From Haloimpatiens lingqiaonensis (GTDB taxonomy: Bacteria > Bacillota > Clostridia > Clostridiales > Clostridiaceae), in the NCBI RefSeq assembly GCF_901447495.1, contig NZ_CABDWS010000019.1, positions 1 to 45,287 of the forward strand: a stretch of DNA of 45,287 nt, read 5' to 3'. The position numbers and the translations under genes were made by a program. Under the pieces are notes generated by a model. The model searched no databases and was not told the origin of the DNA. It worked only from the letters and a program-made list of their open reading frames with translations. Each line of letters begins with the position of its first letter. Within the stretch, counting starts at the first letter, position 1. Below are positions 20,841 through 41,351 of this stretch, piece after piece.

Positions 20841-20900
20841 TGATTTTAAATAAACATATATAAATCCATCTAGCTATTTATAGTTATTTAAAATACAATA

Positions 20901-20970
20901 CCCCGTAGTCTGCTAATTTACGGCTAGCAGGTAGAAACTTTCGGTCCATATTACCGATGATATACGAGCT
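20901..20970 (-). promoter_or_regulatory. Guanine-sensing purine riboswitch
   Basis: The minus strand reads CTCGTATATC, GTAATATGG, AGTTTCTACC, CCGTAAA, then GCAGACTACGGG. These are the conserved joining regions and loops of the purine aptamer. P1 pairs CUCGUA with UACGGG. The discriminating base is C in GACUAC (position 74 in xpt numbering), which specifies guanine/hypoxanthine rather than adenine. It precedes a terminator and pbuX. Confidence 0.95.
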
Positions 20971-20990
20971 TTATGTATGATATACTGGAC

Positions 20991-22869: not shown

Positions 22870-22970
22870 TTAACCGTCCCCAAGTTTTTTCTTGAAACTA
22901 GCTAAAAATTTCTTAACCGTCCCCAAATTTCTTCCCCAAATTTCTAGCTGAAAGTTTCTTAACCGTCCCC
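22870..22970 (-). repeat. Right array of GGGGACGGTTAA motifs, abutting the hydA stop codon
   Basis: Three copies read TTAACCGTCCCC on plus (22870-22881, 22913-22924, 22959-22970), with spacing 43 and 46 bp. The last shares its final base with the hydA stop codon. The orientation is opposite to the left array at 21021-21119. Confidence 0.85.
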
Positions 22971-27340: not shown

Positions 27341-27474
27341 TAAACAGAGCTCTTAGCTTCAGATGGAGTTTTTACTCCAACTGAATGTTAGAGATCGTTA
27401 TCCAGGGACGTAGCTGCCGTTATCTCCCACTTTGTTAGAAGTGGGAGTGTTACGGCAGGTAGTCATCGGATAAA
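27341..27474 (-). repeat. 134-bp structured repeat element, copy 2 (hyd leader)
   Basis: Nearly identical to 40676-40809 (I see two differences in 134 bp). On the minus strand it folds as CTGCCGT and CTCCCACTT pairing with AAGTGGGAG and ACGGCAG, then a linker TACGTCCCTGG, then a CTTCAG...GGAGT/ACTCC...CTGAAG hairpin and a final CTCTGTTTA. The element lies about 250 bp upstream of hydC, in the same orientation as the gene. It encodes no recognisable protein. Confidence 0.85.
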
Positions 27475-27512
27475 CTAAATATAATCTTTATTCAGTTAAT
27501 TCTTAGATTAAT

Positions 27513-29175: not shown

Positions 29176-29263
29176 GGGGACAGTTAAGCTATTTTTACAA
29201 ATAAATTGGGGACAGTTAAGCTATTTTCAGTATTTCTAAGCTGAAAATAGCTTAACCGTCCCC
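29176..29263. repeat. REP-like hairpin of GGGGACAGTTAA motifs after ecfS
   Basis: The motif occurs directly at 29176-29187 and 29208-29219 and inverted at 29252-29263. The inner pair forms a 23-bp stem (29208-29230 with 29241-29263; one A/C mismatch) with a 10-nt loop, beginning GGGGACAGTTAAGCTATTTT. It lies 6 bp from the ecfS stop codon and could terminate the corrinoid operon. Confidence 0.9.
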
Positions 29264-29269
29264 AAATTT

Positions 29270-30490
29270 TTAGAATAAGTCGTACTTTACTTTTATTCTT
29301 TCTAATTTCTCTATCATAGGATCTGAGATAAAAAATAAAAATACAACCGTTGCAAAAGCATGTACTAAGTCAAAGGGAATTCCTGTGGCATAGGTGGATA
29401 ATAATGCTTTTAGTGTAAATCTAGGCATTATCATGGTTATTGCACATATGTTCATTATTCCGCCATATATTAAAAATGTTGCTAATCCACCATAAATGCA
29501 TAATATGAAGCGGTTGCTTTTTAATCTTCCCTTTTTAAATATTATGCCTGCAATGAATCCTATTATGCCGAAGCTAAACATTTGCCAAGGAGTCCAAGGG
29601 CCTTGTCCAAAGAAGAAGTTGGATACAAGTCCAGCCATAGCCCCTGTTAAAAATGCCTCTTCCGGTCCAAAACACACACCCGTTATTATAATAATAGCTA
29701 CTACTGGCTTAAATTGAGGTAGCATAAAAAATGCCATTCTTCCCACAACGGCTATAGCAGCCATGGTAGCAATTAATATAAGTTCTCTAGCTTGAGGTTT
29801 TCTTTTTTCAAACTTCATAAAAAACGGTACCATGGTATAAATAACTATCATTATACTAATAAAAAAATATTTTCTATCATTTAATTTATATATACCAAAG
29901 GCAATAGTTAGTGGTATAAGTATTAGTATTATAAAAAATGTTATTAATTTTTGTATACTAAATTTACGCACCTTTTTATTTATACCATTTACACTGGTAC
30001 TGCTATTTGTGTTTCCGTAATCAGTATTTGTATAATTAGTTTTGGTATGGCTAGTACTATTTTCTGTATATCCAATACCGTTATTTCTATTACTATTATC
30101 ATCAGCATAACTATTATTACTTTTATAACTACTATTATCAGCAACATAGCTATTATTATTTTTATAACTACTATTATCATTTGCGTAACTACCATTATTT
30201 TTATAATTATCATCATTTTTATAATTATTATCATTTTTATAATTATCATCATTTTTATAATTATTATCATTATTATAACTAGCATCATTATTATAACTAT
30301 CATCATTATTATAACTATCATCATTATTATAACTATCATCATTATTATAACTATCATCATTATTGTAACTAGCATCATTATTGTAACTAGCATCATTATT
30401 GTAACTATCATCATTAATATAGCTACTGCCACTAGTATACCTGTTTCTTTTATTTGTGTTTGTATTATTATTTATACTCTCTTTCGGCAT
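29270..30490 (-). CDS. ECF transporter substrate-binding S component, predicted cobalamin/corrinoid (CbrT-like), 406 aa
   Basis: S components capture a vitamin in the membrane and deliver it to the ECF module. The membrane domain starts near residue 178. It has six or so helices, with LPQFKPVVAIIIITGVCFGP and FFFGQGPWTPWQMFSFGIIG, a pattern I associate with cobalamin-type S components of Firmicutes. Residues 1-175 are unlike the family: a low-complexity Asn/Asp/Tyr region with 6-residue units of DDSYNN type (residues 24-97) and looser repeats to about 135. SD AGAGGTG precedes ATG 30490, overlapping ecfA by 19 nt. Substrate is inferred from the cobalamin riboswitch and DUF4430 neighbours. Confidence 0.8.
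   Translation of the reverse strand: MPKESINNNTNTNKRNRYTSGSSYINDDSYNNDASYNNDASYNNDDSYNNDDSYNNDDSYNNDDSYNNDASYNNDNNYKNDDNYKNDNNYKNDDNYKNNGSYANDNSSYKNNNSYVADNSSYKSNNSYADDNSNRNNGIGYTENSTSHTKTNYTNTDYGNTNSSTSVNGINKKVRKFSIQKLITFFIILILIPLTIAFGIYKLNDRKYFFISIMIVIYTMVPFFMKFEKRKPQARELILIATMAAIAVVGRMAFFMLPQFKPVVAIIIITGVCFGPEEAFLTGAMAGLVSNFFFGQGPWTPWQMFSFGIIGFIAGIIFKKGRLKSNRFILCIYGGLATFLIYGGIMNICAITMIMPRFTLKALLSTYATGIPFDLVHAFATVVFLFFISDPMIEKLERIKVKYDLF
30176..30440 (-). repeat. 18-bp tandem repeat encoding the EcfS N-terminus
   Basis: The unit ATCATCATTATTATAACT (plus strand) is repeated about 12-14 times with variation. The period is a multiple of three and encodes hexapeptides. Long spurious open frames on both strands arise from it. 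Confidence 0.9.
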
Positions 30491-32619
30491 ATGGAAATCA
30501 CCTCTTTGTAGCTGGTAACATCGTTTAATATTCCCCTGGTTAGGCGGTTTAAGGAGGTGGTGTAAAAACTGTTGTCCTTAAAGAATTTGCCAGGTTCATC
30601 CGTGGAAACTATGGTTCCATTAAAAAACATAGAACATTTATCTGAGTACTCAGCACAAAAATCCAAGTCATGGGAAACTATTATAATAGTGACTCCATCC
30701 TGTTTCAATTTTTTAATTATTGCTCCTAGCTTATATTTAAAAAAGCTGTCTAAGGCTTTTGTAGGCTCATCTAGCAATAAAACCTTAGGGCTGAGCATTA
30801 AAATTTTTGCCATGGCAACTATTTGTTGTTCTCCTCCGCTTAGATCATAGGGATGCCTTTTTAGAAGCGATTCTATTCCAAAATACTTTATTATATCTTC
30901 TAATTTTTCATTTGCCTCAGCTTTTTTTATGCCTCTACCTTTTAATACTTCTTTTAAATCTAATTCTACAGTTTTCTTCACAAATAGTGCTTGTGGATTT
31001 TGAGGCATGAGAACTATTTTGTTGTTGCATAGTATGGTTTCTCTTTTTTTAAATACATCTACATCATTGTATTTCACAGTGCCTCTATAGGGCTGGCATA
31101 ATCCAGCTATTAGTCTTAGCATAGTGGTTTTCCCTGTACCATTTCCCCCTACTATGGAGTAAATCTCTCCTGCATCAACTTCTAGTGACAAGTCTTTGAT
31201 TATATCTTGACCATTCTTTTCATATCTAAACCAAACTTCATTTAATTCTATAATGGATTTATCTTTTTCTATTTTCTTTCCTTTTCCCATTATTCTATCT
31301 ATTATACTTACTTTTCTTATTCCTTTTGAATTCATTGAATTTACTTCTACACAAGATTTACCAAGACCTTCTGAATTCTTTGAATCTGCACCTACATAAG
31401 ATTTATCTGGACCTTCTGAATTCTTCGCACTTTCATATGGGTGAACTTTATCTAATACTTTTGAATTCTTTGCATCTATATCTGTATAAAATTTATCTAT
31501 GCCTTTTAACCCTTTTGTCTCTACATCTGAAGAAGATTCATCTATGCCTTTTGAATTTCTTTCATTTGTACCTTCTGTACCTTGGGACTCTACATGAAAA
31601 TTCACATTTGCAGATGTTAATTCGGCATTATTATCACATACAGCACAGGTAGAGTTTGTATCATAAGAAGCAGCTATCGAGGCACATATGGTGGCTGTCT
31701 CATCAGAAGCAGCTATTTCCGAATCACAGTTAGAGGTTAATGTATCACATGCTTCCACATCTAGCTTATGGTCCTTCACATTTGGATATTGGTCATTCAA
31801 ATAGGAGTTAAGCCATCTTCTACCTTCTTTTATGGTTACAGGATTTTCATGGCTGCCTAAAGTTACAGCTAATCTCATTGGTATTGGAAGGGCATTAAAC
31901 ATAGCTTCATTTTTACCATAAATAATTGAACCAATTTTGTTAGGTGTGGTATCTCCTACAATTTCTCCTTTGTCCATTACTATCACTCTATCAGACAAGG
32001 GCAATACATCATCTAAATGGTGCTCTACTATTATTATAGTAGTTCCCAGTTCTATATTAACCCTTTTAATGGTATTTAAAAAATCCACTGTGGCTATTGG
32101 GTCCAGCTGCGATGTAGGTTCATCCAATAGCAACATATCTGGCTGCATGACCATTATGGAAGCTAAGTTTAAAAGCTGTTTTTGACCCCCGGATAATTCT
32201 GTAACTGATTTTGTAAACCAAGTTTGTATTCCAAAAAATGATGCCATTTCGGCTACTCTTGAACGTATGGTGTTTCTGTCGTATCCAAGACTTTCTAGTC
32301 CAAAAGCTAATTCATGCCATACTTTGTCGGTAACCACTTGGTTATCTGGATTTTGAAGCACATATCCTATGCTACTGGCTTCACTGCGCAAATCTATTGA
32401 TTTTATATCTTTACCCTTGTATAATATATTTCCTTTTGTAGTACCTGCAGGAGTTAAAGCTGGCTTTAAATGCCTTAGAAGTGTTGATTTTCCACATCCT
32501 GATCTACCACATATGGTTATAAAATCACCACTTTCTACTGAAAAATTAATATCCCTTAATGCATTTTCAGTGCTGCCTGAATAAGCAAATGTTAAATTGT
32601 TGACCTTAAGCGTTTCCAT
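30472..32619 (-). CDS. ECF transporter fused double ATPase (EcfA-A'), 715 aa
   Basis: Two complete ABC ATPase domains power vitamin uptake together with EcfT and EcfS. Domain 1: Walker A GRSGCGKSTLL, signature LSGGQKQ, Walker B MLLLDEPTSQLD. Domain 2: GGNGTGKTTMLRL, LSGGEQQ, VLLLDEPTKALD. The start is the ATG at 32619 (METLKVNNLTF), preceded by GGGAGGAC; upstream in-frame codons overlap ecfT without an SD. The linker between the domains is unusual: residues about 353-433 are tandem 15-residue units such as NSEGPDKSYVGADSK. ecfA overlaps ecfT by 28 nt and ecfS by 19 nt, indicating tight coupling. Confidence 0.92.
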   Translation of the reverse strand: METLKVNNLTFAYSGSTENALRDINFSVESGDFITICGRSGCGKSTLLRHLKPALTPAGTTKGNILYKGKDIKSIDLRSEASSIGYVLQNPDNQVVTDKVWHELAFGLESLGYDRNTIRSRVAEMASFFGIQTWFTKSVTELSGGQKQLLNLASIMVMQPDMLLLDEPTSQLDPIATVDFLNTIKRVNIELGTTIIIVEHHLDDVLPLSDRVIVMDKGEIVGDTTPNKIGSIIYGKNEAMFNALPIPMRLAVTLGSHENPVTIKEGRRWLNSYLNDQYPNVKDHKLDVEACDTLTSNCDSEIAASDETATICASIAASYDTNSTCAVCDNNAELTSANVNFHVESQGTEGTNERNSKGIDESSSDVETKGLKGIDKFYTDIDAKNSKVLDKVHPYESAKNSEGPDKSYVGADSKNSEGLGKSCVEVNSMNSKGIRKVSIIDRIMGKGKKIEKDKSIIELNEVWFRYEKNGQDIIKDLSLEVDAGEIYSIVGGNGTGKTTMLRLIAGLCQPYRGTVKYNDVDVFKKRETILCNNKIVLMPQNPQALFVKKTVELDLKEVLKGRGIKKAEANEKLEDIIKYFGIESLLKRHPYDLSGGEQQIVAMAKILMLSPKVLLLDEPTKALDSFFKYKLGAIIKKLKQDGVTIIIVSHDLDFCAEYSDKCSMFFNGTIVSTDEPGKFFKDNSFYTTSLNRLTRGILNDVTSYKEVISICRKRV
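31325..31557 (-). repeat. 45-bp tandem repeat in the EcfA-A' linker
   Basis: About five degenerate units of 45 bp encode 15-residue repeats (NSKGIDESSSDVETK, GLKGIDKFYTDIDAK, NSKVLDKVHPYESAK, NSEGPDKSYVGADSK, NSEGLGKSCVEVNSM). Nucleotide divergence is higher than in the EcfS or kinase repeats, so this expansion is older. Confidence 0.85.
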
Positions 32620-33479
32620 ACCATGTCCTCCCTCACATTTACTATAACTGGAAAAATACACAATAAAGTATATGATATATAAAACAAAACACTTACTATA
32701 GATATGCTTTTATATCTTATAATAGGAAAAAACATTATTGTGTTAAATCCTAAATATGCTCCAATTAGTACAATTAATATATTTAAAGTTATGTAAATTA
32801 AACATTTCTTATCTCTAGAATCAAATCTGTATAAAGAAAAACTCGTTCTGCCTTTTAATCCATATCCCCTAGCTTTCATGGAGTCTGCTGTTTCAATACC
32901 ATTTTCAAGAGCCCAAGTTATCATTATGGATATTACTTTTACACCATTTCTTATCATACTAAAAATAGTACCTTGAGAGGCTCCCCTACCTATGGATTTT
33001 TGCCCTTCTTCAACTACCTTTAGTTGTGCTTTAAATTTAGGCACAAATCTTAATGTCATAGACAGCACTAGGGATAGTGCTGGTATAATGCTTCCAAATA
33101 AGTACATAAACTTATCTGAGGTCATAACTTTATGGTAACAAGAAAACCATATAAGTACTGATACAAACATTATACCCGCACCTACTCCGAATGCTATTGA
33201 TTCTAAAGTTATTCCATGATCATTTAAGAAAAACAGTGCTGTTTCTCCTTGGTGAACAAATAATGGATTTAGTATAGATATTGCTAATCCTATACACAAA
33301 GAAGAAAGCAAATTAAATTTTACTGCCTTACTGCCTCCCAAATACACAGAATATATAAAACTACATATTAATGATATTACAAGAAAAGCTGGATGCATAA
33401 AAAACATTGAAAATAAAATAACAGAAGTAAAATATGTGAAATTTATTATGGGGTGTAATCTTGAAAATGCATCACACAT
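32592..33479 (-). CDS. ECF transporter transmembrane coupling protein EcfT (CbiQ family), 295 aa
   Basis: EcfT couples ATP hydrolysis to S-component toppling. About five to six hydrophobic helices are seen (LVISLICSFIYSVYLGG near the N-terminus; IMFFPIIRYKSISIVSVLFY near the C-terminus). The family coupling motif Ala-Arg-Gly is in ETADSMKARGYGLKGRTSF (about residue 195). The N-terminus MCDAFSRLHPIINFTYF is typical of CbiQ proteins. The ATG at 33479 overlaps the stop of the preceding DUF4430 gene (TAATG), so translation is coupled. It is a dedicated T unit, suggesting a group I (single-substrate) ECF transporter. Confidence 0.9.
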   Translation of the reverse strand: MCDAFSRLHPIINFTYFTSVILFSMFFMHPAFLVISLICSFIYSVYLGGSKAVKFNLLSSLCIGLAISILNPLFVHQGETALFFLNDHGITLESIAFGVGAGIMFVSVLIWFSCYHKVMTSDKFMYLFGSIIPALSLVLSMTLRFVPKFKAQLKVVEEGQKSIGRGASQGTIFSMIRNGVKVISIMITWALENGIETADSMKARGYGLKGRTSFSLYRFDSRDKKCLIYITLNILIVLIGAYLGFNTIMFFPIIRYKSISIVSVLFYISYTLLCIFPVIVNVREDMVWKRLRSTI

Positions 33480-34450
33480 TATTTATCACCTATCCATTCA
33501 CACCCAACATCTCTTCCTAAGTCGCATGTGTATTCCCATTCTATATTATCTCCAGGTTTGAGAAGATATCTGCTACAGCCATAGTTTGGAAACCAACCAT
33601 TAACTTTGTACATCCATCCACTTAAAGCACCACAGTCAAATTCGTATAAGTTATGAATTCCTTTAATATAAACACTGTTATACATTGGGGTAAATTCGAA
33701 ATCCATGTGTATTCTGTTTCTGGCCATTTCTCTTGAAAGCACATTGTACACCGATTCTCCTTCGTAATATACGGCTCTTCTTCTTTTGTATATTACTCCA
33801 TCACTTGGAACCATGCATTCTTTTCCTTTACGCAAATCCCCCATATTGTTTAATATAGTGTTACATCTTACAGAGAGAATGCAATAATGGGCTCTACTAG
33901 GGTCTATCTTTACATCTTGAGGTTCAACCGGTGTTGGCATTCCCTCAGGAGTAGGGTCGGTCATATATTTATCTTTTTTAGTAGAGTCTGTATGCTTATT
34001 AGCCTTTGCAACTAATTCCGAATACTTACCATCGCTGGGATTTACTCCAGAAGTTGGCTTTTGAACTAAACTTCTATCTGCTTTATTTGGATCATCTTTT
34101 TTAAATTTGGGTCTTTCCTTGCTGTTCTTTGATGACTTGTTGCTTGAAGTTGATTTACTAGCTGCAGCTTCATTGGCCTTATTTACTACTTTACTAGCCT
34201 CGCTCTTAGCTTTCTCTTCAGCTTTTTCTTTCTCTTTATCAATTGGTTTTGATTTACTCTCCGAGTCCTGTTTACTTTCTTCAGGAACACTTGAAACTTC
34301 AGATTTTCCATTTTCCGCTATTTGAACGATTTTAGCAGCATTTTCAGCATGTTCATCTGGGGTTTCTATCTTAGCACGAACAACCATTAAACTTATACCC
34401 ATAAATATAGCTATTACAAAAGCTACTATAGATAATCGTTTTTTTAACAC
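33479..34450 (-). CDS. Membrane-anchored DUF4430 (transcobalamin beta-domain-like) protein, 323 aa
   Basis: One N-terminal anchor or signal helix (about 7-25) is followed by a 150-residue Lys/Glu/Ser-rich linker (for example DKEKEKAEEKAKSEASKVV) that can span the wall. A DUF4430 domain follows (about 190-320): CILSVRCNTILNNMGDL, YYEGESVYNVLSREM, and the hallmark ALSGWMYKVNGWFPNYGCS with LLKPGDNIEWEYT. DUF4430 (Pfam PF14478) is the beta domain that binds cobalamin in animal transcobalamin and intrinsic factor. It is coupled to ecfT by a 1-nt overlap, so it is likely the capture protein closest to the transporter. Ligand binding is inferred. Confidence 0.82.
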   Translation of the reverse strand: MLKKRLSIVAFVIAIFMGISLMVVRAKIETPDEHAENAAKIVQIAENGKSEVSSVPEESKQDSESKSKPIDKEKEKAEEKAKSEASKVVNKANEAAASKSTSSNKSSKNSKERPKFKKDDPNKADRSLVQKPTSGVNPSDGKYSELVAKANKHTDSTKKDKYMTDPTPEGMPTPVEPQDVKIDPSRAHYCILSVRCNTILNNMGDLRKGKECMVPSDGVIYKRRRAVYYEGESVYNVLSREMARNRIHMDFEFTPMYNSVYIKGIHNLYEFDCGALSGWMYKVNGWFPNYGCSRYLLKPGDNIEWEYTCDLGRDVGCEWIGDK

Positions 34451-34544
34451 TACACTACACCTACCTTACTAATTTAATATATTTCCAAATTTTTTAATTT
34501 AAAAATTATTAACCTTCTCTAAAACTTTTTTGCTTTTGTTTTAT

Positions 34545-34667
34545 CTAAAAGTTGTTAATAAAAGTTGTTAACCGTCCCCAAGTTTTTCTGTTTTTTGTTT
34601 TATCTAAAAGTTGTTAACTGTCCCCCAGTTTCTTCTCTTTCTTCTCTAAAAGTTGTTAACTGTCCCC
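34545..34667 (-). repeat. Array of three GGGGAC(A/G)GTTAA motifs between two operon genes
   Basis: TTAAC(C/T)GTCCCC at 34568-34579, 34614-34625 and 34656-34667, in units of 42-46 bp containing TTATCTAAAAGTTG. The array ends 11 bp from the stop of the surface-protein gene at 34679, inside the corrinoid operon. Confidence 0.85.
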
Positions 34668-34678
34668 CAGGTTTTTGT

Positions 34679-37261
34679 TTACCTTTTCTTTAAAACCAAC
34701 ACTAGTGCTCCACTGCAAATAAATAAAACAGTAACAAGTATAGGTTTTGAATTATCTCCTGTTTTAGGAGTTTCTATATTTGTATTGTCTGTATCTGAAG
34801 TTCCTTCTTTATCAGTTCCGTTTTGTGAATCATCTAATTGTGCTTTTGAATCTGTACCTGTTTTAAGCTTAGAATCTGCACTAATGAAATAATCTGAGCA
34901 ATGATCAATTTCAAATGTTGCTTTTCCATCTTTCACAGCTATTTCATTAACTAATTCAGCCTTTGCTGTTTTTTCATTGAAATAGTATAAATAATAATTT
35001 CCATCTTTCAAATCAACTTCGATAGTTATTTTTGCTTTTCCTGGCAACTTACCTTCATGTGAAAAGCTTAAAACAACAGCATCTTTTGCCATATCTTTAA
35101 TTTTTCCATAGTTTTCAGATGTAAATGAAATCTTTGTATTAAAACTAATTTCTGGGTCTGTAATTTCATTTCCCTTAAAGCTTATTGAATAACCTTTGCC
35201 CTCTACAGTTTTATCATTAAAGGTATAAACTTCATCAGAACCCATTATATTTTTAAATACATCGTTTACAATCGTCTTATTATTTTCAAGTTCACTTATT
35301 ACTTTTTCTGCAAATAAAACATCATTATAGTTTTTAACATGCTTTCTATCTTTTTCATTAAGTTTTTGGTATTCAGCCTTTAACTCCAAAACAGCCTTTT
35401 TATCCTTTAAAGTTACATTCATAGGATATATTTCACTAAAAATTCTATTATCAAGTTCTCTTACCTTAGCTTCAATTTCTTCTATCTTTTTCATTAATGA
35501 CTCTAATTTTTCACAGCCAGCTTTCTTATCTGGTAAATCTGGTAATGATTTTAGAGCAATTAAAAGTTGAGAAACATTATTTTTATCATCAAGTCCAATA
35601 TCACTTGGTAATCTGTCAATATTATCTAAAATTAATTTTAGTTTAGCGAGATTTTCTTTTTCTAATTCTTCTTTAAGTTCCTTAAGTTTCTTATTTGCAT
35701 TATTCAATTTTTCAATATTTGTTACCTTTTTCTTGTCAGTATCGCTTAGTTTATTAAACTTATCATTTATTTCTACTATTTTTTTCTCATCAGCTAATGT
35801 AATTTTTTCTGGAAGATTATTTATAGCATTTATTACATCATTTACCATAGCTTCATCTGATACCATAATATTAATTTCATATTTTTTTACTTCATTTTGT
35901 CTATTTTTTATTTCAATCTGTATTTTTTCTCCATCTACGGCCTTTATTTCAGAATTTACTGGTATACTGCTTGTATCATAAGGACCCATTGGTATATTTA
36001 CGAAGCTAAAACTCTTTACATTGGATGGAATTTCAAGAGAATAGCTTTGCTTATCTTTATCAAGGGCTATGTTGTAATTATTTCCATTGCCCTTTATAAT
36101 GAATTCCTTTTGATTGGTTTCTGAACGAAAATCATATAGGTTTCTCATATTATTTCTTAAACGCCAGTAAGATACCAAACCATAAAGTGTCTGTTCTGTT
36201 GCCATACTATTTGATGCATCAGGTTTAGAGCTTGGATTTTCAGGATCATATTTATATGAGTGTAAAAATCCTCCGTCTCTATCATTTCTATATTTCATTA
36301 TTCCATCAATTAATGTTTTTCCATTTTTTATAAATCTTGAATCTTTCTCGCAGTCAATTCCAACAGAACACAATGCAGTAAGAATTTGAACCGTACTTTC
36401 TACATTTTCAGTTCCCCAACTAAAATAATCACCATCATTATTTTGTCTTTTACCCATTAAGTCCAGACCTTCATCTATAATTTGCTTTATAGTTTTACTG
36501 CACTCTATATAATTTCCTTGTGCATCCTTAATGTGTTTTGATTTATATGTGTACACTTTATCACTGTTATAATATGGTGCTAAGGCTTGTATAGACATGC
36601 CTGTTATATCTATATCAGATACCTCTCCCCAAAGGGCAAATCCACCATCTGCTAATTGTTCCTCAAGTATTGCTTTTATGATATCATCTCTTGTATATTT
36701 AGCTCCATCTGGGACCTCGTATCTCATACTATCCATTGAAATAAGGGCCCAAATAGCTCCATTTATACCCTGTCCCTTAATTCCTCTTTTTGTAACACAA
36801 TTATAACTACCATCTGCAATTAAATTTATAGGCTTGCCATTTGGATCAGTTCCAATTTTTGTAGGATCTCCACCCATAGCAAGAACTGCCAAAGAAATTC
36901 TATGCCACTCAGTACCTTTCACAGGGTGTAATTTACCTCTATCCTTATATCTTTCAGTAATATTTTTTTCTATGGCAGAAAGATATGCAGCATAATCATC
37001 TTTATATCCATATCTTCCAATACCTATTGGAAACCAATCACCAGGTGTGGTTCCTGCCATCTTTAAGAATTCAGGATTTAATAGTTTTTCATTTCCTTGC
37101 TTTGCCCATTTTATTATTCCTTCAATAGTTTCTTCTAGCTTTGCATTAGAAATAGAATTAACTTTTGCTTCCTTTGCAAAAACATTAGTAGTCATTCCAA
37201 GTATCATAAATATTGAAAGCATAATACTTAGTAACCTTTGTTTAATTTTCAAAACATACAC
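34679..37261 (-). CDS. Sortase-anchored surface protein with terpenoid-cyclase-like alpha/alpha barrel, 860 aa
   Basis: Signal peptide 1-28 (cleavage near NVFA/KEA). Residues about 35-370 have prenyltransferase/squalene-oxidase-like repeats: EEQLADGGFALWGEVSD, GKRQNNDGDYFSWGTENVES and DRDGGFLHSY with NSMATEQTLYGLVSYWR. This is the fold of the alpha domain in transcobalamin and intrinsic factor. Residues about 465-670 hold three helical modules (INNLPEKITLADEKKIVEIN), a beta-rich region follows, and the C-terminus has a TPKTG sorting signal (831) plus membrane helix and KKR. The TPKTG motif matches the (S/P/T)PxTG type used by clostridial class B sortases. ATG 37261 follows AGAGGGG. Sortase gene directly upstream. 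A role in corrinoid capture is inferred from fold and riboswitch context. Confidence 0.82.
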   Translation of the reverse strand: MYVLKIKQRLLSIMLSIFMILGMTTNVFAKEAKVNSISNAKLEETIEGIIKWAKQGNEKLLNPEFLKMAGTTPGDWFPIGIGRYGYKDDYAAYLSAIEKNITERYKDRGKLHPVKGTEWHRISLAVLAMGGDPTKIGTDPNGKPINLIADGSYNCVTKRGIKGQGINGAIWALISMDSMRYEVPDGAKYTRDDIIKAILEEQLADGGFALWGEVSDIDITGMSIQALAPYYNSDKVYTYKSKHIKDAQGNYIECSKTIKQIIDEGLDLMGKRQNNDGDYFSWGTENVESTVQILTALCSVGIDCEKDSRFIKNGKTLIDGIMKYRNDRDGGFLHSYKYDPENPSSKPDASNSMATEQTLYGLVSYWRLRNNMRNLYDFRSETNQKEFIIKGNGNNYNIALDKDKQSYSLEIPSNVKSFSFVNIPMGPYDTSSIPVNSEIKAVDGEKIQIEIKNRQNEVKKYEINIMVSDEAMVNDVINAINNLPEKITLADEKKIVEINDKFNKLSDTDKKKVTNIEKLNNANKKLKELKEELEKENLAKLKLILDNIDRLPSDIGLDDKNNVSQLLIALKSLPDLPDKKAGCEKLESLMKKIEEIEAKVRELDNRIFSEIYPMNVTLKDKKAVLELKAEYQKLNEKDRKHVKNYNDVLFAEKVISELENNKTIVNDVFKNIMGSDEVYTFNDKTVEGKGYSISFKGNEITDPEISFNTKISFTSENYGKIKDMAKDAVVLSFSHEGKLPGKAKITIEVDLKDGNYYLYYFNEKTAKAELVNEIAVKDGKATFEIDHCSDYFISADSKLKTGTDSKAQLDDSQNGTDKEGTSDTDNTNIETPKTGDNSKPILVTVLFICSGALVLVLKKR

Positions 37262-37315
37262 TTCCCCTCTAATTTATTGCTATGTCAACACAAAAATGTA
37301 TTAATTATGCCCCTA

Positions 37316-38074
37316 TTATTCAGCTTTAATTAACTTTCCTTGAACTACAAGCCTAGCATTTTCCCACTCATATGCACAGGTAGACAAAGTAATCATTGTA
37401 TCCTTACAATTAAATTCAACATCTTTAAAATACAATGCTGAGCTTTTGATTAATTTTAAATAATTGCTCAATTCTTCATCATTATGAAAATAAATTTTTC
37501 TATAATCAAAGTCTGAATTTACAACAAAAACAGAGAAAATTTCAAATTTATATTCTTTAGGAAGAATAACTAAGTCTACCATTGGATTATTCTTACAGAA
37601 CTCTTCCTTTTTAAAAAGTTTTAAATCTGCAAACATGCTTCCATCCTTCATGTTATGTCCATATAAAATTATGTTCTGTCCAGCTAGGCTATTATTGTTC
37701 AATTTATTTCTGTAATCAATAAAAATAGTTCCATACTTACTTTTATTCTTTTTAATATCATGTTTAATATAGAATTCATTATTATCACATTGAACTATTG
37801 GATAGTTAATTTTACTGTTGTTAATCTTTATAATCCCTTTTATATCACTATTTATATGGGTTAAGCTTTGCATAACATCGCTGTTTTCACTCTTATTGTT
37901 TGAGCCATTTTTGATTATTTGAGAAAGTTTTTTAGATAAATCATCATTTAATTTTTTATTATAGTAATATTCATATCCCATATAAACAAGGCTTGCTGCC
38001 GAAAGGACAAAAGCTATTAGTGCAATTAAAAATACCAGCTTTCTACCTTTCTTAACCTCTCGCTCAAATATCAT
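37316..38074 (-). CDS. Class B sortase, 252 aa
   Basis: A membrane-bound transpeptidase that links surface proteins to peptidoglycan. One N-terminal membrane helix (about 12-33). The catalytic triad is visible: His140 in LYGHNMKDGSMF, Cys233 in TLSTC and Arg241 in ENARLVV. TLSTC and the 'YGHNMKDGSMFADL' pattern are class B features. The start is the ATG at 38074 (MIFEREVKKG), preceded by GAAAGGGG; a TTG 18 nt upstream lies before the SD. It sits between the two proteins carrying TPKTG signals, so it is probably dedicated to them, as SrtB is to iron-regulated haem uptake proteins in other Firmicutes. Confidence 0.93.
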   Translation of the reverse strand: MIFEREVKKGRKLVFLIALIAFVLSAASLVYMGYEYYYNKKLNDDLSKKLSQIIKNGSNNKSENSDVMQSLTHINSDIKGIIKINNSKINYPIVQCDNNEFYIKHDIKKNKSKYGTIFIDYRNKLNNNSLAGQNIILYGHNMKDGSMFADLKLFKKEEFCKNNPMVDLVILPKEYKFEIFSVFVVNSDFDYRKIYFHNDEELSNYLKLIKSSALYFKDVEFNCKDTMITLSTCAYEWENARLVVQGKLIKAE

Positions 38075-38175
38075 ATTTAACCCCTTTCTCAAAACTAATC
38101 AAAAATCTTTGCTCTATATTTCTTTTGTTCTATATTTCTTTAGGACACCAAAGTTTTTATTATAAATTTATATTT

Positions 38176-40644
38176 TTATTGTAATTTTTTCTTTTTTGAA
38201 ACACTCAAAACTACTAATGCTACTAAAGCTGTAGTAAACACAATGCTCATCATAAGAATAGGTGACTTATCACCAGTTTTAGGTGTTTCTGCAATTTCTT
38301 CTGATTTAGTTGTGTTTTCAGTTTCTGCAGTTTTATCTGTTTTAGGTGTCTCTAGCGTTTCACCTGGTTTTTGTGTTATATCTTTGCCCTGATTATCTAC
38401 TGGCTTAGTACTTAATTTAGGAACTGTAACTTTACATGTAGCAGTGAACTTGCCAACTTTTGCAGTAATAACTGCCTCCCCTGCTTTTAAAGCTGTTACC
38501 TTTCCATCTTTTACAGTTACAACCGTATCATCGGAACTTGTCCATTGTACAGTTTTATCATCTGTGGTATTTTCTTCTTTATAAATAACTATTAAATTTT
38601 CTTGTGCACTTTTATCTAATACTAAAGATGTAATGTTAAGTGATATACCAGTCAAAGGAATTTTTAAATCTTGAATTTTTTTAATTGCATTATTTAACTT
38701 TTCAGCATTTGTCACCTTTTTCTGATCACTAACACTTAATTCATCAAATTCTTTCTTTATTTCCATGACCTTTTCTTCATCTTTTAATGTAACCTCTTCT
38801 GGTAAACTATCTATATCTTTTATTATTTTTTGTAAATTTTTATTAAGCTCTTCAATCTTTTCTATTGCTTTGTTTAACTTTTCAGCATTTGTTACCTTTT
38901 TCTTATCAGCGCTGCTTAACATATCAAATTGCTTCTTTATTTCCATAACTTTTTCTTCATCATCTAATATAATATTTTCTGGTAAATTATCTATATCTTT
39001 TATTAACTTCTTTACAACTCCATTAAGTTCTTCAATCTTTTTAATTGCATTGTTTAGTTTTTCAACATTTGTTATACCTTTCTGCACATCACTACTTAAC
39101 TTATCAAAGTTTGCCTTTACTGCCATAACCTTTTCCTGGTCATCTAATGTGATGTTCTCTGGTAAATTATCTATCTCTTCTATTACAAGCTCTTGAATCT
39201 TTTTAATTGCATTGTTTAACTTTTCAGCATTTGTCACTTTTTTCTGATCACTAACACTTAATTTATCAAATGCTATCTTCACTTCCATAACTTTTTCTTC
39301 ATCTTTTAATGTAATATCTTCTGGTAAATTATCTATCTCTTTTATTACATTCTGTAAAATTTCTTTTAGTTCTTCAATTTTCTTAATGGCATTATTTAAC
39401 TTTTCAATATTTGTTATTTCCTTTTGAGCATCGGTAGTTAGTTTATCAAAATTCTCTTTTATTTTCATAACTTTTTCTTGGTCATCTAATGTAATGTTTT
39501 GTGGTAAATTTTCTATATCTTTGATAACAAGTTTTTGTAGTTCAAATTCTTTTATAACTTTATCTAATTTCATAGAAATTTCATCTACAGACTTTTGCGT
39601 AGCATCTAATTGAACAGCTATTTTATTTGCCTCGTCATATACTGACTTAACCCAAGCTTTTTTTAATATTTCTCCTTTATTCTTTGCAGAATTTATAGAA
39701 GAAATTACTGACATCAATCTATCTTTATTAGACACCTCGTAATAGTCAGTGTTTGAACCACCCATGGCATAGCCGCCACCTATATCTGCACCATAGCCAT
39801 ATAAAGTGAATTGTACACGAATTACATCTCCATCAACTGGATAAGAATCAGCAAAGCCTACATTTGGAAATACATTATTTAGAGCATACATCCAACCAGA
39901 CATATATGTGTAATCAAACTCCCCTAAGCATTTAGGATCATATAATTCATCTGTGGGCCAGTTTCCCTTATCTTCTAAAATTTTCTTTAGTCTTTCAGGC
40001 ACTTTATCCTCAATATTCACAGGAGGATTTAAAGGTTGTATTTTATCTTCATCTTTACATCCATAATCAAGTTCTCCCCCATCTCCTATTGTAGATAGAT
40101 AAAAACTGCTCTCTAATTTTCCAGTACGGTTATAGGAATAACCATGTTCAGTTAAAAGTCGATCTAATGCTTGCGCTGAATTCTCTCCTTCATAAATAGG
40201 AACCTTTGTAGGTTCAATTATAAAACCTCTGCCAATGGTCAATCCTTCCACTGTCCAAGTGGCGTAACCAATCAATTCTCCCTTAGCAGCTTTTTTATAT
40301 ATAATGTTATAGGTTTTAGTTGCTTCGATATCACCTGAAAAGGCTCTTACAACAACTGTATTTTTACCCTCTTGAGTAAATTTAAGCGTATAGCTTGTTT
40401 TATTTTGGTCATCCCAGTTTTGATTTACCTTTTCTCCATTTAGGGTAACTTCACTTGATATTTTTTGTCCATCTAATCTAGCAATAACATCAAAGGTTTT
40501 TTTACTACCTTTTAGTGTAACCCCATCAGTTAATGTGGTTTCTAAAGAAATCTGCCCTTTTTCAGCCGCATAGACTGATGGTGGAACTGCTATTATCATC
40601 ATGAACAATGATAGCAACAGCGCCACAACTTTCTTAAGTTTCAT
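38176..40644 (-). CDS. Sortase-anchored surface protein with DUF4430 and helical repeats, 822 aa
   Basis: Signal peptide 1-26 (cleavage after SVYA). Residues about 30-115 look like a beta-sandwich. A DUF4430 domain follows (about 120-285; NSAQALDRLLTEHGYSYN and YMSGWMYALNNVFPNVGFAD). Five helical repeats of about 58 residues (EIDNLPENITLDDQEKVMAV type, about 365-665) form a probable stalk. A Big2-type Ig domain (about 668-745; VQWTSSDDTVVTVKDGKVTA) precedes a TPKTG sorting signal (787), membrane helix and KKKK tail. The helical modules match those of the 860-aa partner. First gene after the cobalamin riboswitch; likely the outermost cobalamin-binding subunit. ATG 40644 follows a GGGGGG-type SD. 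Confidence 0.85.
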   Translation of the reverse strand: MKLKKVVALLLSLFMMIIAVPPSVYAAEKGQISLETTLTDGVTLKGSKKTFDVIARLDGQKISSEVTLNGEKVNQNWDDQNKTSYTLKFTQEGKNTVVVRAFSGDIEATKTYNIIYKKAAKGELIGYATWTVEGLTIGRGFIIEPTKVPIYEGENSAQALDRLLTEHGYSYNRTGKLESSFYLSTIGDGGELDYGCKDEDKIQPLNPPVNIEDKVPERLKKILEDKGNWPTDELYDPKCLGEFDYTYMSGWMYALNNVFPNVGFADSYPVDGDVIRVQFTLYGYGADIGGGYAMGGSNTDYYEVSNKDRLMSVISSINSAKNKGEILKKAWVKSVYDEANKIAVQLDATQKSVDEISMKLDKVIKEFELQKLVIKDIENLPQNITLDDQEKVMKIKENFDKLTTDAQKEITNIEKLNNAIKKIEELKEILQNVIKEIDNLPEDITLKDEEKVMEVKIAFDKLSVSDQKKVTNAEKLNNAIKKIQELVIEEIDNLPENITLDDQEKVMAVKANFDKLSSDVQKGITNVEKLNNAIKKIEELNGVVKKLIKDIDNLPENIILDDEEKVMEIKKQFDMLSSADKKKVTNAEKLNKAIEKIEELNKNLQKIIKDIDSLPEEVTLKDEEKVMEIKKEFDELSVSDQKKVTNAEKLNNAIKKIQDLKIPLTGISLNITSLVLDKSAQENLIVIYKEENTTDDKTVQWTSSDDTVVTVKDGKVTALKAGEAVITAKVGKFTATCKVTVPKLSTKPVDNQGKDITQKPGETLETPKTDKTAETENTTKSEEIAETPKTGDKSPILMMSIVFTTALVALVVLSVSKKKKLQ

Positions 40645-40675
40645 TTCATATTCCCCCCTATAAAAATCTAAATTA

Positions 40676-40809
40676 TAAACAGAGCTCTTAGCTTCAGATG
40701 GAGTTTTTACTCCAACTGAAGGTTAGAGATCGTTATCCAGGGACGTAGCTGCCGTTATCTCCCACTTTGTTAGAAGTGGGAGTGTTACGGCAGGTAGTCA
40801 TGGGATAAA
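40676..40809 (-). repeat. 134-bp structured repeat element, copy 3 (corrinoid operon leader)
   Basis: Second nearly identical copy of the element at 27341-27474, in the same orientation relative to the downstream gene. It lies between the riboswitch terminator (40811-40842) and the first coding sequence (start 40644), so it is transcribed as 5' UTR whenever the riboswitch permits read-through. Same two-hairpin fold. Confidence 0.88.
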
Positions 40810-40810
40810 T

Positions 40811-40842
40811 AAAAAAAAGAGAACCACAATTCGGTTCTCTTT
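40811..40842 (-). terminator. Intrinsic terminator of the cobalamin riboswitch
   Basis: AGAGAACC pairs with GGTTCTCT (40818-40825 with 40833-40840) and is followed on minus by T8 and TATTT. A second hairpin upstream in the transcript, AATAAGTATT/AATACTTATT (about 40877-40902), may be an antiterminator or spacer structure. Confidence 0.85.
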
Positions 40843-40954
40843 TAAACAGATTATTAAAAAATTAATTGTAAACAATAAGTATTCTCAATAATACTTATTA
40901 CTTGCACAAAAATAATCAAGCTAAAATCCCACCGATATTGCTTAATAAAAAAAC

Positions 40955-41115
40955 ATAAGGCAGGTCTCCTGACTTGAAATCATCCTACTAACTTAAAGTC
41001 TTCCCAGTTTTACCAGTGACTAAGAACATTAAAATATGTTCTTTTATAAGTTTTCGTCTTTCTCACAGTAGCGGGGGCTGTTATGGTCTTTCACCATATT
41101 CCCTTTTAATGTACG
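40955..41115 (-). promoter_or_regulatory. Cobalamin riboswitch (class with B12 box)
   Basis: On minus the conserved blocks occur in order: AAAAGGGAA, GGTGAAA, ACAGCCCCCGCTACTGTGA (B12 box), GTCACTG, GGGAAGACTTTAAG and GTCAGGAGACCTGCC. All are canonical for the adenosylcobalamin-type aptamer; the peripheral arm (AAGAACATATTTTAATGTTCTT) forms an extra stem. It precedes the terminator at 40811 and the seven-gene locus ending at 29270, which should be expressed when corrinoid is scarce. Confidence 0.97.
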
Positions 41116-41166
41116 TTTTAATGTACAACCCTACATTTGACTATTTAATTTTAATCATTCAAGTTC

Positions 41167-41195
41167 ATTATATATCTTATGTATCCATAATACAA
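41167..41195 (-). promoter_or_regulatory. Promoter of the cobalamin-riboswitch transcript
   Basis: On minus, TTGTAT (41195-41190) and TATAAT (41172-41167) are separated by 17 bp. Transcription would start about 45 nt before the aptamer. Confidence 0.7.
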
Positions 41196-41263: not shown

Positions 41264-41351
41264 GGGGACGGTTAAGTTTTTTATTGTTACTTTTACTTTT
41301 TTTAGTTATTTTATTACTCTTATTTAAGCTCAAAACTTCTTAACCGTCCCC
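41264..41351. repeat. Inverted pair of GGGGACGGTTAA motifs
   Basis: GGGGACGGTTAA at 41264-41275 and TTAACCGTCCCC at 41340-41351 enclose 64 bp of T-rich sequence. This is a REP-pair-like unit between the glnS terminator and the corrinoid-operon promoter. Confidence 0.85.

What the first reader, a model, noticed from the sequence alone, without database searches (positions are those of the whole stretch)
29270..41195. Predicted wall-anchored, split-transcobalamin corrinoid uptake system under a cobalamin riboswitch
One riboswitch-led minus-strand cluster encodes, in order, a sortase-anchored DUF4430 protein, a class B sortase, a sortase-anchored alpha/alpha-barrel protein, a membrane-anchored DUF4430 protein, EcfT, EcfA-A' and EcfS. 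Animal transcobalamin/intrinsic factor is an alpha6/alpha6 barrel joined to a DUF4430-type beta domain; here the two halves are on separate surface proteins with matching helical stalks. The simplest model is a relay from outer wall to membrane-tethered DUF4430 to ECF S component, like SrtB-linked haem relays. I know of no experimental description of such a corrinoid relay in Gram-positives.
Basis: partly seen in the sequence, partly recalled or inferred. Interest (0 to 1): 0.88.

Follow-up and report, generated by a model that had tools for sequence, protein, structure and literature searches.

The report
Split-transcobalamin vitamin B12 uptake gene cluster
A Clostridium-like bacterium carries a B12-sensing gene cluster that appears to catch vitamin B12-like molecules with wall-attached relatives of the two halves of our own blood B12 carrier and to hand them to a membrane pump; the general idea was predicted in 2007, but this wall-anchored version with the halves on separate proteins can now be tested directly.

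Summary
A cobalamin riboswitch (113.6 bits) with a terminator leads seven minus-strand genes: wall SLBB (DUF4430) protein, class B sortase, wall toroid protein, membrane SLBB protein, EcfT, EcfAA', EcfS. Tests favour corrinoid uptake. The modelled wall SLBB domain matches the human transcobalamin beta domain (Z up to 10.5, 103 residues). The toroid matches the transcobalamin alpha domain (Z 18.5), but many other toroids too, terpene cyclases best. The best solved match of EcfS is CbrT (6FNP), a proven B12 S-component. The P(K/Q)TGD(N/K) sorting pattern occurs exactly twice in each of four genomes, always at the ends of the two wall proteins. One toroid and two SLBB matches were found in this genome, unfused, so a transcobalamin-like clamp could only form in trans. 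Related clusters occur in many Clostridia and Paenibacillus; in 45 of 80 fetched loci a cobalamin riboswitch directly leads a cluster gene. Burroughs et al. (2007) predicted SLBB/toroid/CbiO/CbiQ operons for B12 scavenging, so this is a new variant of a predicted kind. Corrinoid binding, the clamp and the relay order are inferred, not shown.

The parts
40942..41148 (-). Cobalamin riboswitch aptamer (RF00174)
   Evidence: 113.6 bits, E 7.4e-28, full model 1-189/189
40815..40843 (-). Terminator-like hairpin between the aptamer and the first gene; likely OFF-switch expression platform
   Evidence: 12-pair stem and T tail; role inferred
38176..40644 (-). Wall-anchored SLBB (DUF4430) protein, 822 aa: signal-like N-terminus (by eye), Ig-like domain, transcobalamin-beta-type SLBB domain, helical stalk repeats, Big_2, TPKTGD sorting signal
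   Evidence: PF14478 and Big_2; model pLDDT 89.7; Ig-like matches at model residues 4-95; tandem stalk repeats of 162-180 nt
39799..40293 (-). SLBB domain of the wall protein (about aa 118-282)
   Evidence: matches human transcobalamin residues about 305-409, six entries, Z 10.1-10.5, 100-103 residues
38267..38283 (-). PKTGDK sorting signal of the wall SLBB protein
   Evidence: one of two genome-wide pattern matches
37316..38092 (-). Class B sortase, presumably dedicated to the two wall proteins
   Evidence: TIGR03064 199.8 bits, cut-off 153.75; of three sortase matches in the genome the only one that matches this model at E<=1e-5
34679..37261 (-). Wall-anchored alpha/alpha-toroid protein, 860 aa, helical stalk, TPKTGD sorting signal
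   Evidence: its G002 and G043 orthologues match the stalk of the wall SLBB protein (E 2e-12, 3e-12)
36131..37171 (-). Alpha/alpha toroid domain (about aa 31-377)
   Evidence: AlphaFold2 pLDDT 86.8, pTM 0.89; terpene cyclases Z about 22, transcobalamin 7qbg Z 18.5 over 258 residues
34752..34768 (-). PKTGDN sorting signal of the toroid protein
33479..34450 (-). Membrane-tethered SLBB (DUF4430) protein, 323 aa; SLBB core at 33527-33760
   Evidence: PF14478 59 bits, 61.8 bits; hydrophobic N-terminus by eye; the G043 orthologue has a lipobox-like FTGC there
32592..33479 (-). EcfT transmembrane coupling protein
   Evidence: PF02361, 27.5 bits, cut-off 25
30472..32661 (-). EcfA-EcfA' fusion, two ABC ATPase domains with a low-complexity linker
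   Evidence: TIGR04520 373.9 and TIGR04521 354.5 bits, both above cut-off
29270..30490 (-). EcfS substrate-binding component, CbrT-like core with a long N/D/Y/S repeat extension at the N-terminus
   Evidence: 6FNP_A the only PDB hit of the 176-aa core, E 3.3e-9; profile E 1.6e-22

Best explanation
This is a B12-repressed corrinoid capture-and-import system. When adenosylcobalamin is scarce the riboswitch lets transcription pass the terminator (inferred from the class). The class B sortase links two long-stalked proteins to peptidoglycan: a transcobalamin-beta-type SLBB protein and a transcobalamin-alpha-like toroid protein. They catch corrinoids (cobalamin, other cobamides or cobinamide) in the wall. 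A second SLBB protein tethered in the membrane receives the ligand, most likely by closing on the toroid as the beta domain does in transcobalamin, and passes it to the CbrT-like EcfS; EcfT and EcfAA' drive import. Shown here: gene content, riboswitch match, fold matches of toroid and wall SLBB, sorting signals, sortase class, homology of EcfS to CbrT, conservation of the cluster. Inferred: corrinoid binding, clamp in trans, order of hand-over. My probabilities: corrinoid uptake 0.88; toroid and an SLBB protein sharing one ligand (split clamp) about 0.45; ordered wall-to-membrane relay about 0.4.
For: Riboswitch directly upstream here and upstream of the homologous genes in G002, G043, G061, G051 and G009; directly leading an SLBB, toroid or Ecf gene in 45 of 80 loci (53 of 62 hits at E<=1e-5). 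EcfS core: sole PDB hit CbrT 6FNP; profile 1.6e-22 against 3.6e-5 for the next, RibU; CbrT transports cobalamin and cobinamide (PMC5997447, passages). Wall SLBB model matches the transcobalamin beta domain in six entries (4zrp, 7qbg, 2bb5, 5no0, 7qbf, 7qbe) at Z 10.1-10.5. Toroid model matches the transcobalamin alpha domain at Z 18.5, 258 residues. One toroid and two SLBB matches in the whole genome, on three chains. A toroid-bearing gene immediately upstream of the membrane SLBB gene in 56 of 80 loci (40 toroid only, 16 fused with SLBB). Sorting pattern exactly twice per genome in four of four genomes given, control 0.
Against: No ligand binding was tested. The toroid fold matches terpene cyclases and sugar-active enzymes as well or better (550 of 994 aligned chains have Z >= 8), so its transcobalamin match is not specific; the toroid profile finds squalene-hopene cyclases by sequence, not transcobalamin, and the SLBB profile finds no transcobalamin chain by sequence. 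27 of 80 loci gave no upstream riboswitch: 14 of these were also scanned with Rfam and stayed negative at gathering, 13 were not; in 18 of the 27 the gene run comes within 400 nt of the end of the held DNA. 24 of 80 distant relatives came without a toroid-bearing gene directly before the membrane SLBB gene. The genome has CbiD and two riboswitch-led FecCD/Peripla_BP_2 ABC transporters of BtuFCD type, so the need for a further route is unclear. The 228-nt gap before the membrane SLBB gene could break the operon.
Confidence: 0.8

Rival explanations
1. Cobalt or another B12 precursor (not a complete corrinoid) is the substrate; the ECF module is a CbiQ/CbiO-type importer and the surface proteins serve something else.
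For: EcfT falls in PF02361 CbiQ; cobalamin riboswitches also lead cobalt transporters, as in this genome.
Against: The genome has a separate riboswitch-led CbiM-CbiN-CbiQ-ATPase set. EcfS resembles CbrT and has no CbiM match. A cobalt importer would not need transcobalamin-type proteins (inference).
Confidence: 0.05
2. Corrinoid uptake is right, but there is no split clamp or relay: each wall protein acts alone, one as the corrinoid receptor and the toroid as a glycan binder, enzyme or structural partner.
For: The toroid's best structural matches are enzymes; 6 of 80 loci had no toroid match in the held DNA (some are short); ECF-CbrT works without surface proteins in E. coli and in liposomes (PMC5997447, passages).
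Against: A toroid-bearing gene sits directly before the membrane SLBB gene in 56 of 80 loci, and at least one protein with both domains is found in 37 of 80 loci; in transcobalamin the two domains sandwich one B12 (PMC1796856, passage).
Confidence: 0.4
3. The wall proteins mainly take B12 from other binders or bind surfaces (adhesins), and the ECF transporter works independently.
For: Long stalks, Ig-like and Big_2 domains as in many surface proteins.
Against: The riboswitch, the private sortase signals and the conserved neighbourhood tie them to corrinoid supply. No adhesin domain was among the Pfam matches of the two wall proteins at E<=0.1.
Confidence: 0.08

Closest known systems
Transcobalamin-like SLBB operons predicted by Burroughs et al. 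2007 (PMC1796856)
   Same: Secreted SLBB proteins, toroid domains, CbiO-like ATPase and CbiQ-like permease in one predicted operon, a second SLBB paralogue, Gram-positive anchors in some, proposed B12 scavenging (section 7 part 1 of 2).
   Different: The paper describes fused toroid-SLBB proteins and hosts that usually lack key B12 enzymes; the words sortase and riboswitch have no match in its text. Here the halves are on separate chains, there is a private class B sortase, a CbrT-like EcfS, and CbiD in the genome.
ECF-CbrT of Lactobacillus delbrueckii (PDB 6FNP, PMC5997447)
   Same: ECF transporter with a homologous S-component.
   Different: No surface capture proteins appear in the passages seen; [quoted passage not shown]
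Animal transcobalamin / intrinsic factor
   Same: Toroid and SLBB beta-domain folds.
   Different: One soluble chain in animals; three wall- or membrane-bound chains here.
SrtB-linked haem relays (Isd/NEAT type; recalled, no call)
   Same: Class B sortase beside its surface substrates and a membrane importer.
   Different: Different ligand-binding folds and importer class; no NEAT domain in the Pfam lists of the surface proteins.
Clostridioides difficile SrtB (PMC4155245, passages)
   Same: SrtB-type sortase with (S/P)PXTG signals cleaved between T and G.
   Different: There seven predicted, varied substrates; here TPKTGD signals (S, A or T before P in relatives) and two substrates in the same cluster.

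Membership tests
Cobalamin riboswitch (RF00174) | Match to the covariance model above gathering score | tested here: met
   113.6 vs 31.5 bits, full length
Cobalamin riboswitch (RF00174) | Ligand-dependent expression control | not testable with these tools
   A terminator-like hairpin downstream is consistent
Transcobalamin-like SLBB / DUF4430 domain | PF14478 match above cut-off | tested here: met
   membrane protein 59.0, wall protein 24.9, cut-off 23.8 bits
Transcobalamin-like SLBB / DUF4430 domain | Fold superposing on the transcobalamin beta domain | tested here: met
   wall SLBB: six transcobalamin entries, Z 10.1-10.5, 100-103 residues; the membrane SLBB protein was not modelled
Animal transcobalamin family proper | Toroid and SLBB domains on one chain | tested here: not met
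   one toroid and two SLBB matches in the genome, on three chains
Animal transcobalamin family proper | Alpha/alpha toroid fold | tested here: met
   Z 18.5 to 7qbg over 258 residues; not specific, terpene cyclases score higher
Animal transcobalamin family proper | Cobalamin binding | not testable with these tools
   needs a binding assay
CbrT-type B12 ECF transporter | S-component closest to CbrT among solved S-components | tested here: met
   E 1.6e-22 vs 3.6e-5 (RibU) and 5.9e-5 (4hzu_S)
CbrT-type B12 ECF transporter | EcfT plus two ATPase domains | tested here: met
CbrT-type B12 ECF transporter | ATP-driven cobalamin/cobinamide uptake | not testable with these tools
   needs a transport assay
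Class B sortase | TIGR03064 above cut-off | tested here: met
   199.8 vs 153.75 bits
Class B sortase | Recognises the TPKTG signal | not testable with these tools
   genome pattern count only
Isd/NEAT haem relay | NEAT haem-binding domains in the surface proteins | tested here: not met
   no NEAT model among the complete Pfam lists (E<=0.1) of the two wall proteins and the membrane SLBB protein

The most novel reading that the evidence does not exclude
A split transcobalamin works in trans on the Gram-positive surface: a wall-bound toroid and a membrane-bound SLBB protein close over one corrinoid and dock on a CbrT-like ECF S-component, so an ECF transporter is fed by extracellular capture proteins. 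The tether is exchangeable between lineages (SLH domains, a private class B sortase, perhaps dockerin-cohesin) while the capture core stays. Fused forms in relatives would be the bacterial counterpart from which the animal B12 carriers came.
Probability: 0.4. Interest if true: 0.78.

Novelty: new variant of a known kind. Interest (0 to 1): 0.62.

Why it matters
How Gram-positive bacteria bring corrinoids through a thick wall to an ECF transporter is not described in the papers my searches listed. If the reading is true, ECF transporters can have an extracellular capture stage, a 2007 prediction becomes a set of defined parts (three candidate binding proteins, a CbrT-like S-component, a riboswitch, a private sortase), and the idea that animal B12 carriers derive from such bacterial proteins (proposed in PMC1796856) can be tested on living examples.

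Tried and rejected
Sequence-only searches for transcobalamin failed: the toroid alone gave only weak squalene-hopene cyclase hits, its profile hits squalene-hopene cyclases, alpha-2-macroglobulin and prenyltransferases, the SLBB profile nothing significant, the membrane SLBB protein alone nothing significant. Foldseek with the wall SLBB model listed no transcobalamin in the 50 rows shown, since its N-terminal Ig-like domain fills the list; the VIA second look did. An HMM for the whole wall SLBB N-terminus drifted to the membrane SLBB family, so I rebuilt the row list with a single-sequence search. My regular expression for sorting signals missed the window's own signals, so the anchor marks of that table are not used. 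Cobalt import was rejected. Mapping of pocket residues was not done: I found no model coordinates among the files of the script box.

Literature: ten searches. One search (DUF4430) gave six papers, none on a bacterial corrinoid system by title and start of abstract. One search (cobalamin riboswitch + sortase) gave three; in PMC11477304 (passages) the three C. difficile cobalamin riboswitches lead other operons and sortase occurs only in a reference. One search gave PMC1796856 and a fish paper, none, four, none with this system by title and abstract start. Searches listed only 30 of 141, 20 of 23 and 20 of 155 papers; none of the listed ones describes it by title and abstract start. PMC2667541 (12 of 16 passages) does not mention it in those passages. 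Subscription journals and preprints are mostly not held, so absence in print is weakly supported.
Full report
OBSERVATION. The cluster is as described. The window is one whole contig (C19) of a 3.29-Mb genome in 184 contigs; the closest named record in the scan is Clostridium sp. KNHs214, 87% identical in the membrane DUF4430 protein. A cobalamin riboswitch at 41148-40942 (113.6 bits) is followed by a terminator-like hairpin and seven co-directional genes. Pfam and NCBIfam identify two DUF4430 proteins, a class B sortase, EcfT, EcfAA' and an ECF S-component. The toroid protein has no Pfam match above cut-off (best PF13243, 19.2 vs 26.1 bits). Gaps are 83, 54 and 228 nt, then overlaps.

STRUCTURE. 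AlphaFold2 models were made from alignments of window and locus proteins. The toroid (375 residues, 68 rows, pLDDT 86.8, pTM 0.89) is an alpha/alpha toroid: terpene cyclases Z about 22, transcobalamin 7qbg Z 18.5, rmsd 3.3, 258 residues; 550 of 994 aligned chains reach Z 8. Foldseek lists transcobalamin at ranks 37, 40, 41 and 49 of the 50 shown. Many families share this fold, so the match allows transcobalamin but does not single it out. The wall SLBB protein (281 residues, 44 rows, pLDDT 89.7) has an Ig-like domain and, at model residues 94-258, a domain matching human transcobalamin residues about 305-409: 4zrp Z 10.5 (103 residues, 2.7 A), 7qbg 10.5, 2bb5 10.4, 5no0 (isolated beta domain) 10.3, 7qbf 10.3, 7qbe 10.1. 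Among the 50 rows shown these six are the only ones whose match lies wholly in this domain; the Ig-like domain accounts for the others. The membrane SLBB protein was not modelled; it matches PF14478 at 59 bits, and weak sequence hits link the two SLBB types (for example 6e-5). DUF4430 is reported at the C-terminus of TCN proteins (PMC4350170, one passage).

TRANSPORTER. The EcfS core finds one PDB chain, 6FNP_A, at E 3.3e-9; a ten-row profile gives 1.6e-22, next RibU 3.6e-5 and 4hzu_S 5.9e-5. 6FNP is ECF-CbrT, shown to bind and transport cobalamin and cobinamide (PMC5997447, passages). This is homology, not proof of substrate.

ANCHORING. The DNA pattern for P-K-T-G-D-N/K occurs twice in the own genome, in the C-termini of the two wall proteins. 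With P-K/Q allowed it occurs exactly twice in each of the four genomes given (G000, G002, G043, G061), with 0 for the reversed control; the eight places, compared with the gene coordinates, are the C-terminal ends of the toroid and wall SLBB proteins. The four were chosen because their clusters hold the sortase. The window sortase passes the class B model; the other two sortases of the genome do not match it at E<=1e-5. C. [quoted passage not shown] The genome has no SLH match. Of six toroid-bearing proteins examined in relatives four carry SLH domains (L075, L125, L061, L091), one a borderline dockerin with a borderline cohesin gene next to it (L142), and one neither (L065), though it too has a borderline cohesin gene downstream. 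So the tether seems exchangeable.

DISTRIBUTION. Of the 80, 79 hold an SLBB match, 74 a toroid, 64 EcfT, 65 EcfS; 59 hold SLBB, EcfT, EcfA and EcfS together, 56 of them with a toroid; the sortase was found in 1 (L064, the G002 locus). Toroid is on chains without SLBB only in 37, on fused chains only in 24, both in 13, absent in 6; contig ends blur these counts. A profile of 23 riboswitches, with three matches added from Rfam, gave 62 hits at E<=1e-5 in 1.38 Mb, 57 on the strand of the cluster; 53 lie within 800 nt before an SLBB, toroid or Ecf gene, in 45 of 80 loci. An upstream same-strand hit at E<=1e-5 is present in 49 of 80, a weaker one in 4, none in 27. Of 17 profile-negative loci given to Rfam 3 turned positive. 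L123 is an undercount: L061, whose contig has the same length and which reaches further upstream, has a riboswitch beyond the end of L123. The profile was seeded with riboswitches of this family and of the own genome, so it favours them; the Rfam runs are the independent check: 11 of 14 relative loci hold at least one cobalamin riboswitch, not all of them leading the cluster.

GENOME CONTEXT. The genome has eight cobalamin riboswitches. By position they lead, besides this cluster, a CbiM-CbiN-CbiQ-ATPase set, two FecCD/Peripla_BP_2 ABC transporters, one followed by CobN, a chelatase-like AAA gene, probably a CobD_Cbib gene, an unidentified 254-aa ORF, and one at a contig end. CbiD is present (347.7 bits). 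The organism thus probably both makes and scavenges corrinoids, unlike the usual hosts described in 2007.

MECHANISM. The genome shows one toroid match and two SLBB matches on three chains. If a transcobalamin-type sandwich forms, it must form in trans. The gene directly before the membrane SLBB gene is most often a toroid gene (40 of 80, plus 16 fused; 15 other, 5 with a gap over 400 nt, 1 at an edge, 3 without a recognised membrane SLBB gene), which favours toroid plus membrane SLBB as the clamp and the other wall SLBB protein as outer receptor. This is inference. ATP-driven import through a CbrT-like EcfS follows from the ECF family.

COMPARISON AND NOVELTY. Burroughs et al. 2007 already linked SLBB, toroid, CbiO, CbiQ, paralogous SLBB proteins and Gram-positive anchors to B12 scavenging. 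Added here, as far as the listed searches show: the riboswitch link across loci, the CbrT-type S-component, the unfused arrangement in this genome, the private sortase with two substrates, and the exchangeable tether. I rate it a new variant of a predicted kind.

Noticed in passing
window 40690-40815 (-), also 27355-27479: A roughly 126-nt repeat lies between the riboswitch terminator and the first gene; at least 42 copies of 117 nt or more at 97-100% identity in the genome, this one included (only 40 of 168 first-look candidates were scored); no Rfam match at gathering. The 301-nt leader stretch that contains it folds strongly (z -6.85).
   Followed up: partly
window 29251-29263, 41264-41276, 41339-41351, 22912-22924, 22958-22970: The 13-mer GGGGACGGTTAAG occurs 10 times in the genome, five on this contig, with inverted copies or near-copies just outside both ends of the cluster; a repeat with a similar CTGTCCCC end lies in the 228-nt gap before the membrane SLBB gene.
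   Followed up: partly
window 30186-30425: EcfS has a long N-terminal extension of N/D/Y/S repeats encoded by an 18-nt tandem array (13.3 copies); EcfS is 406 aa here and 314 aa in G002.
   Followed up: no
window 31318-31562: The EcfA-EcfA' linker contains a 45-nt tandem repeat (5.4 copies); the protein is 729 aa here and 580 aa in G002.
   Followed up: no
L048 14831-18889: G002 has a second EcfS-EcfAA'-EcfT-SLBB set directly upstream of its copy of the cluster.
   Followed up: no
L142 108-2485, L065 8657-9289: In some relatives a small cohesin-like protein sits between the toroid-bearing and membrane SLBB genes, and the L142 toroid protein has a dockerin-like end (borderline scores): a possible third tether.
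   Followed up: partly
L054, L055, L057: Toroid/SLBB gene clusters without an ECF match in the held stretch of L054 and L055; L057 is similar but has a riboswitch-led set with an EcfA match downstream. In L054 a cobalamin riboswitch lies directly upstream of a toroid gene.
   Followed up: no
L042 8569-15621: A riboswitch-led FecCD/Peripla_BP_2 ABC transporter is followed by a CobN-type chelatase gene, in a genome that also has CbiD.
   Followed up: partly
L041 18226-18990: A 254-aa hydrophobic ORF follows one of the own genome's cobalamin riboswitches; it was not identified.
   Followed up: no
window 20886-20987 (-): Purine riboswitch, 84.6 bits.
   Followed up: no
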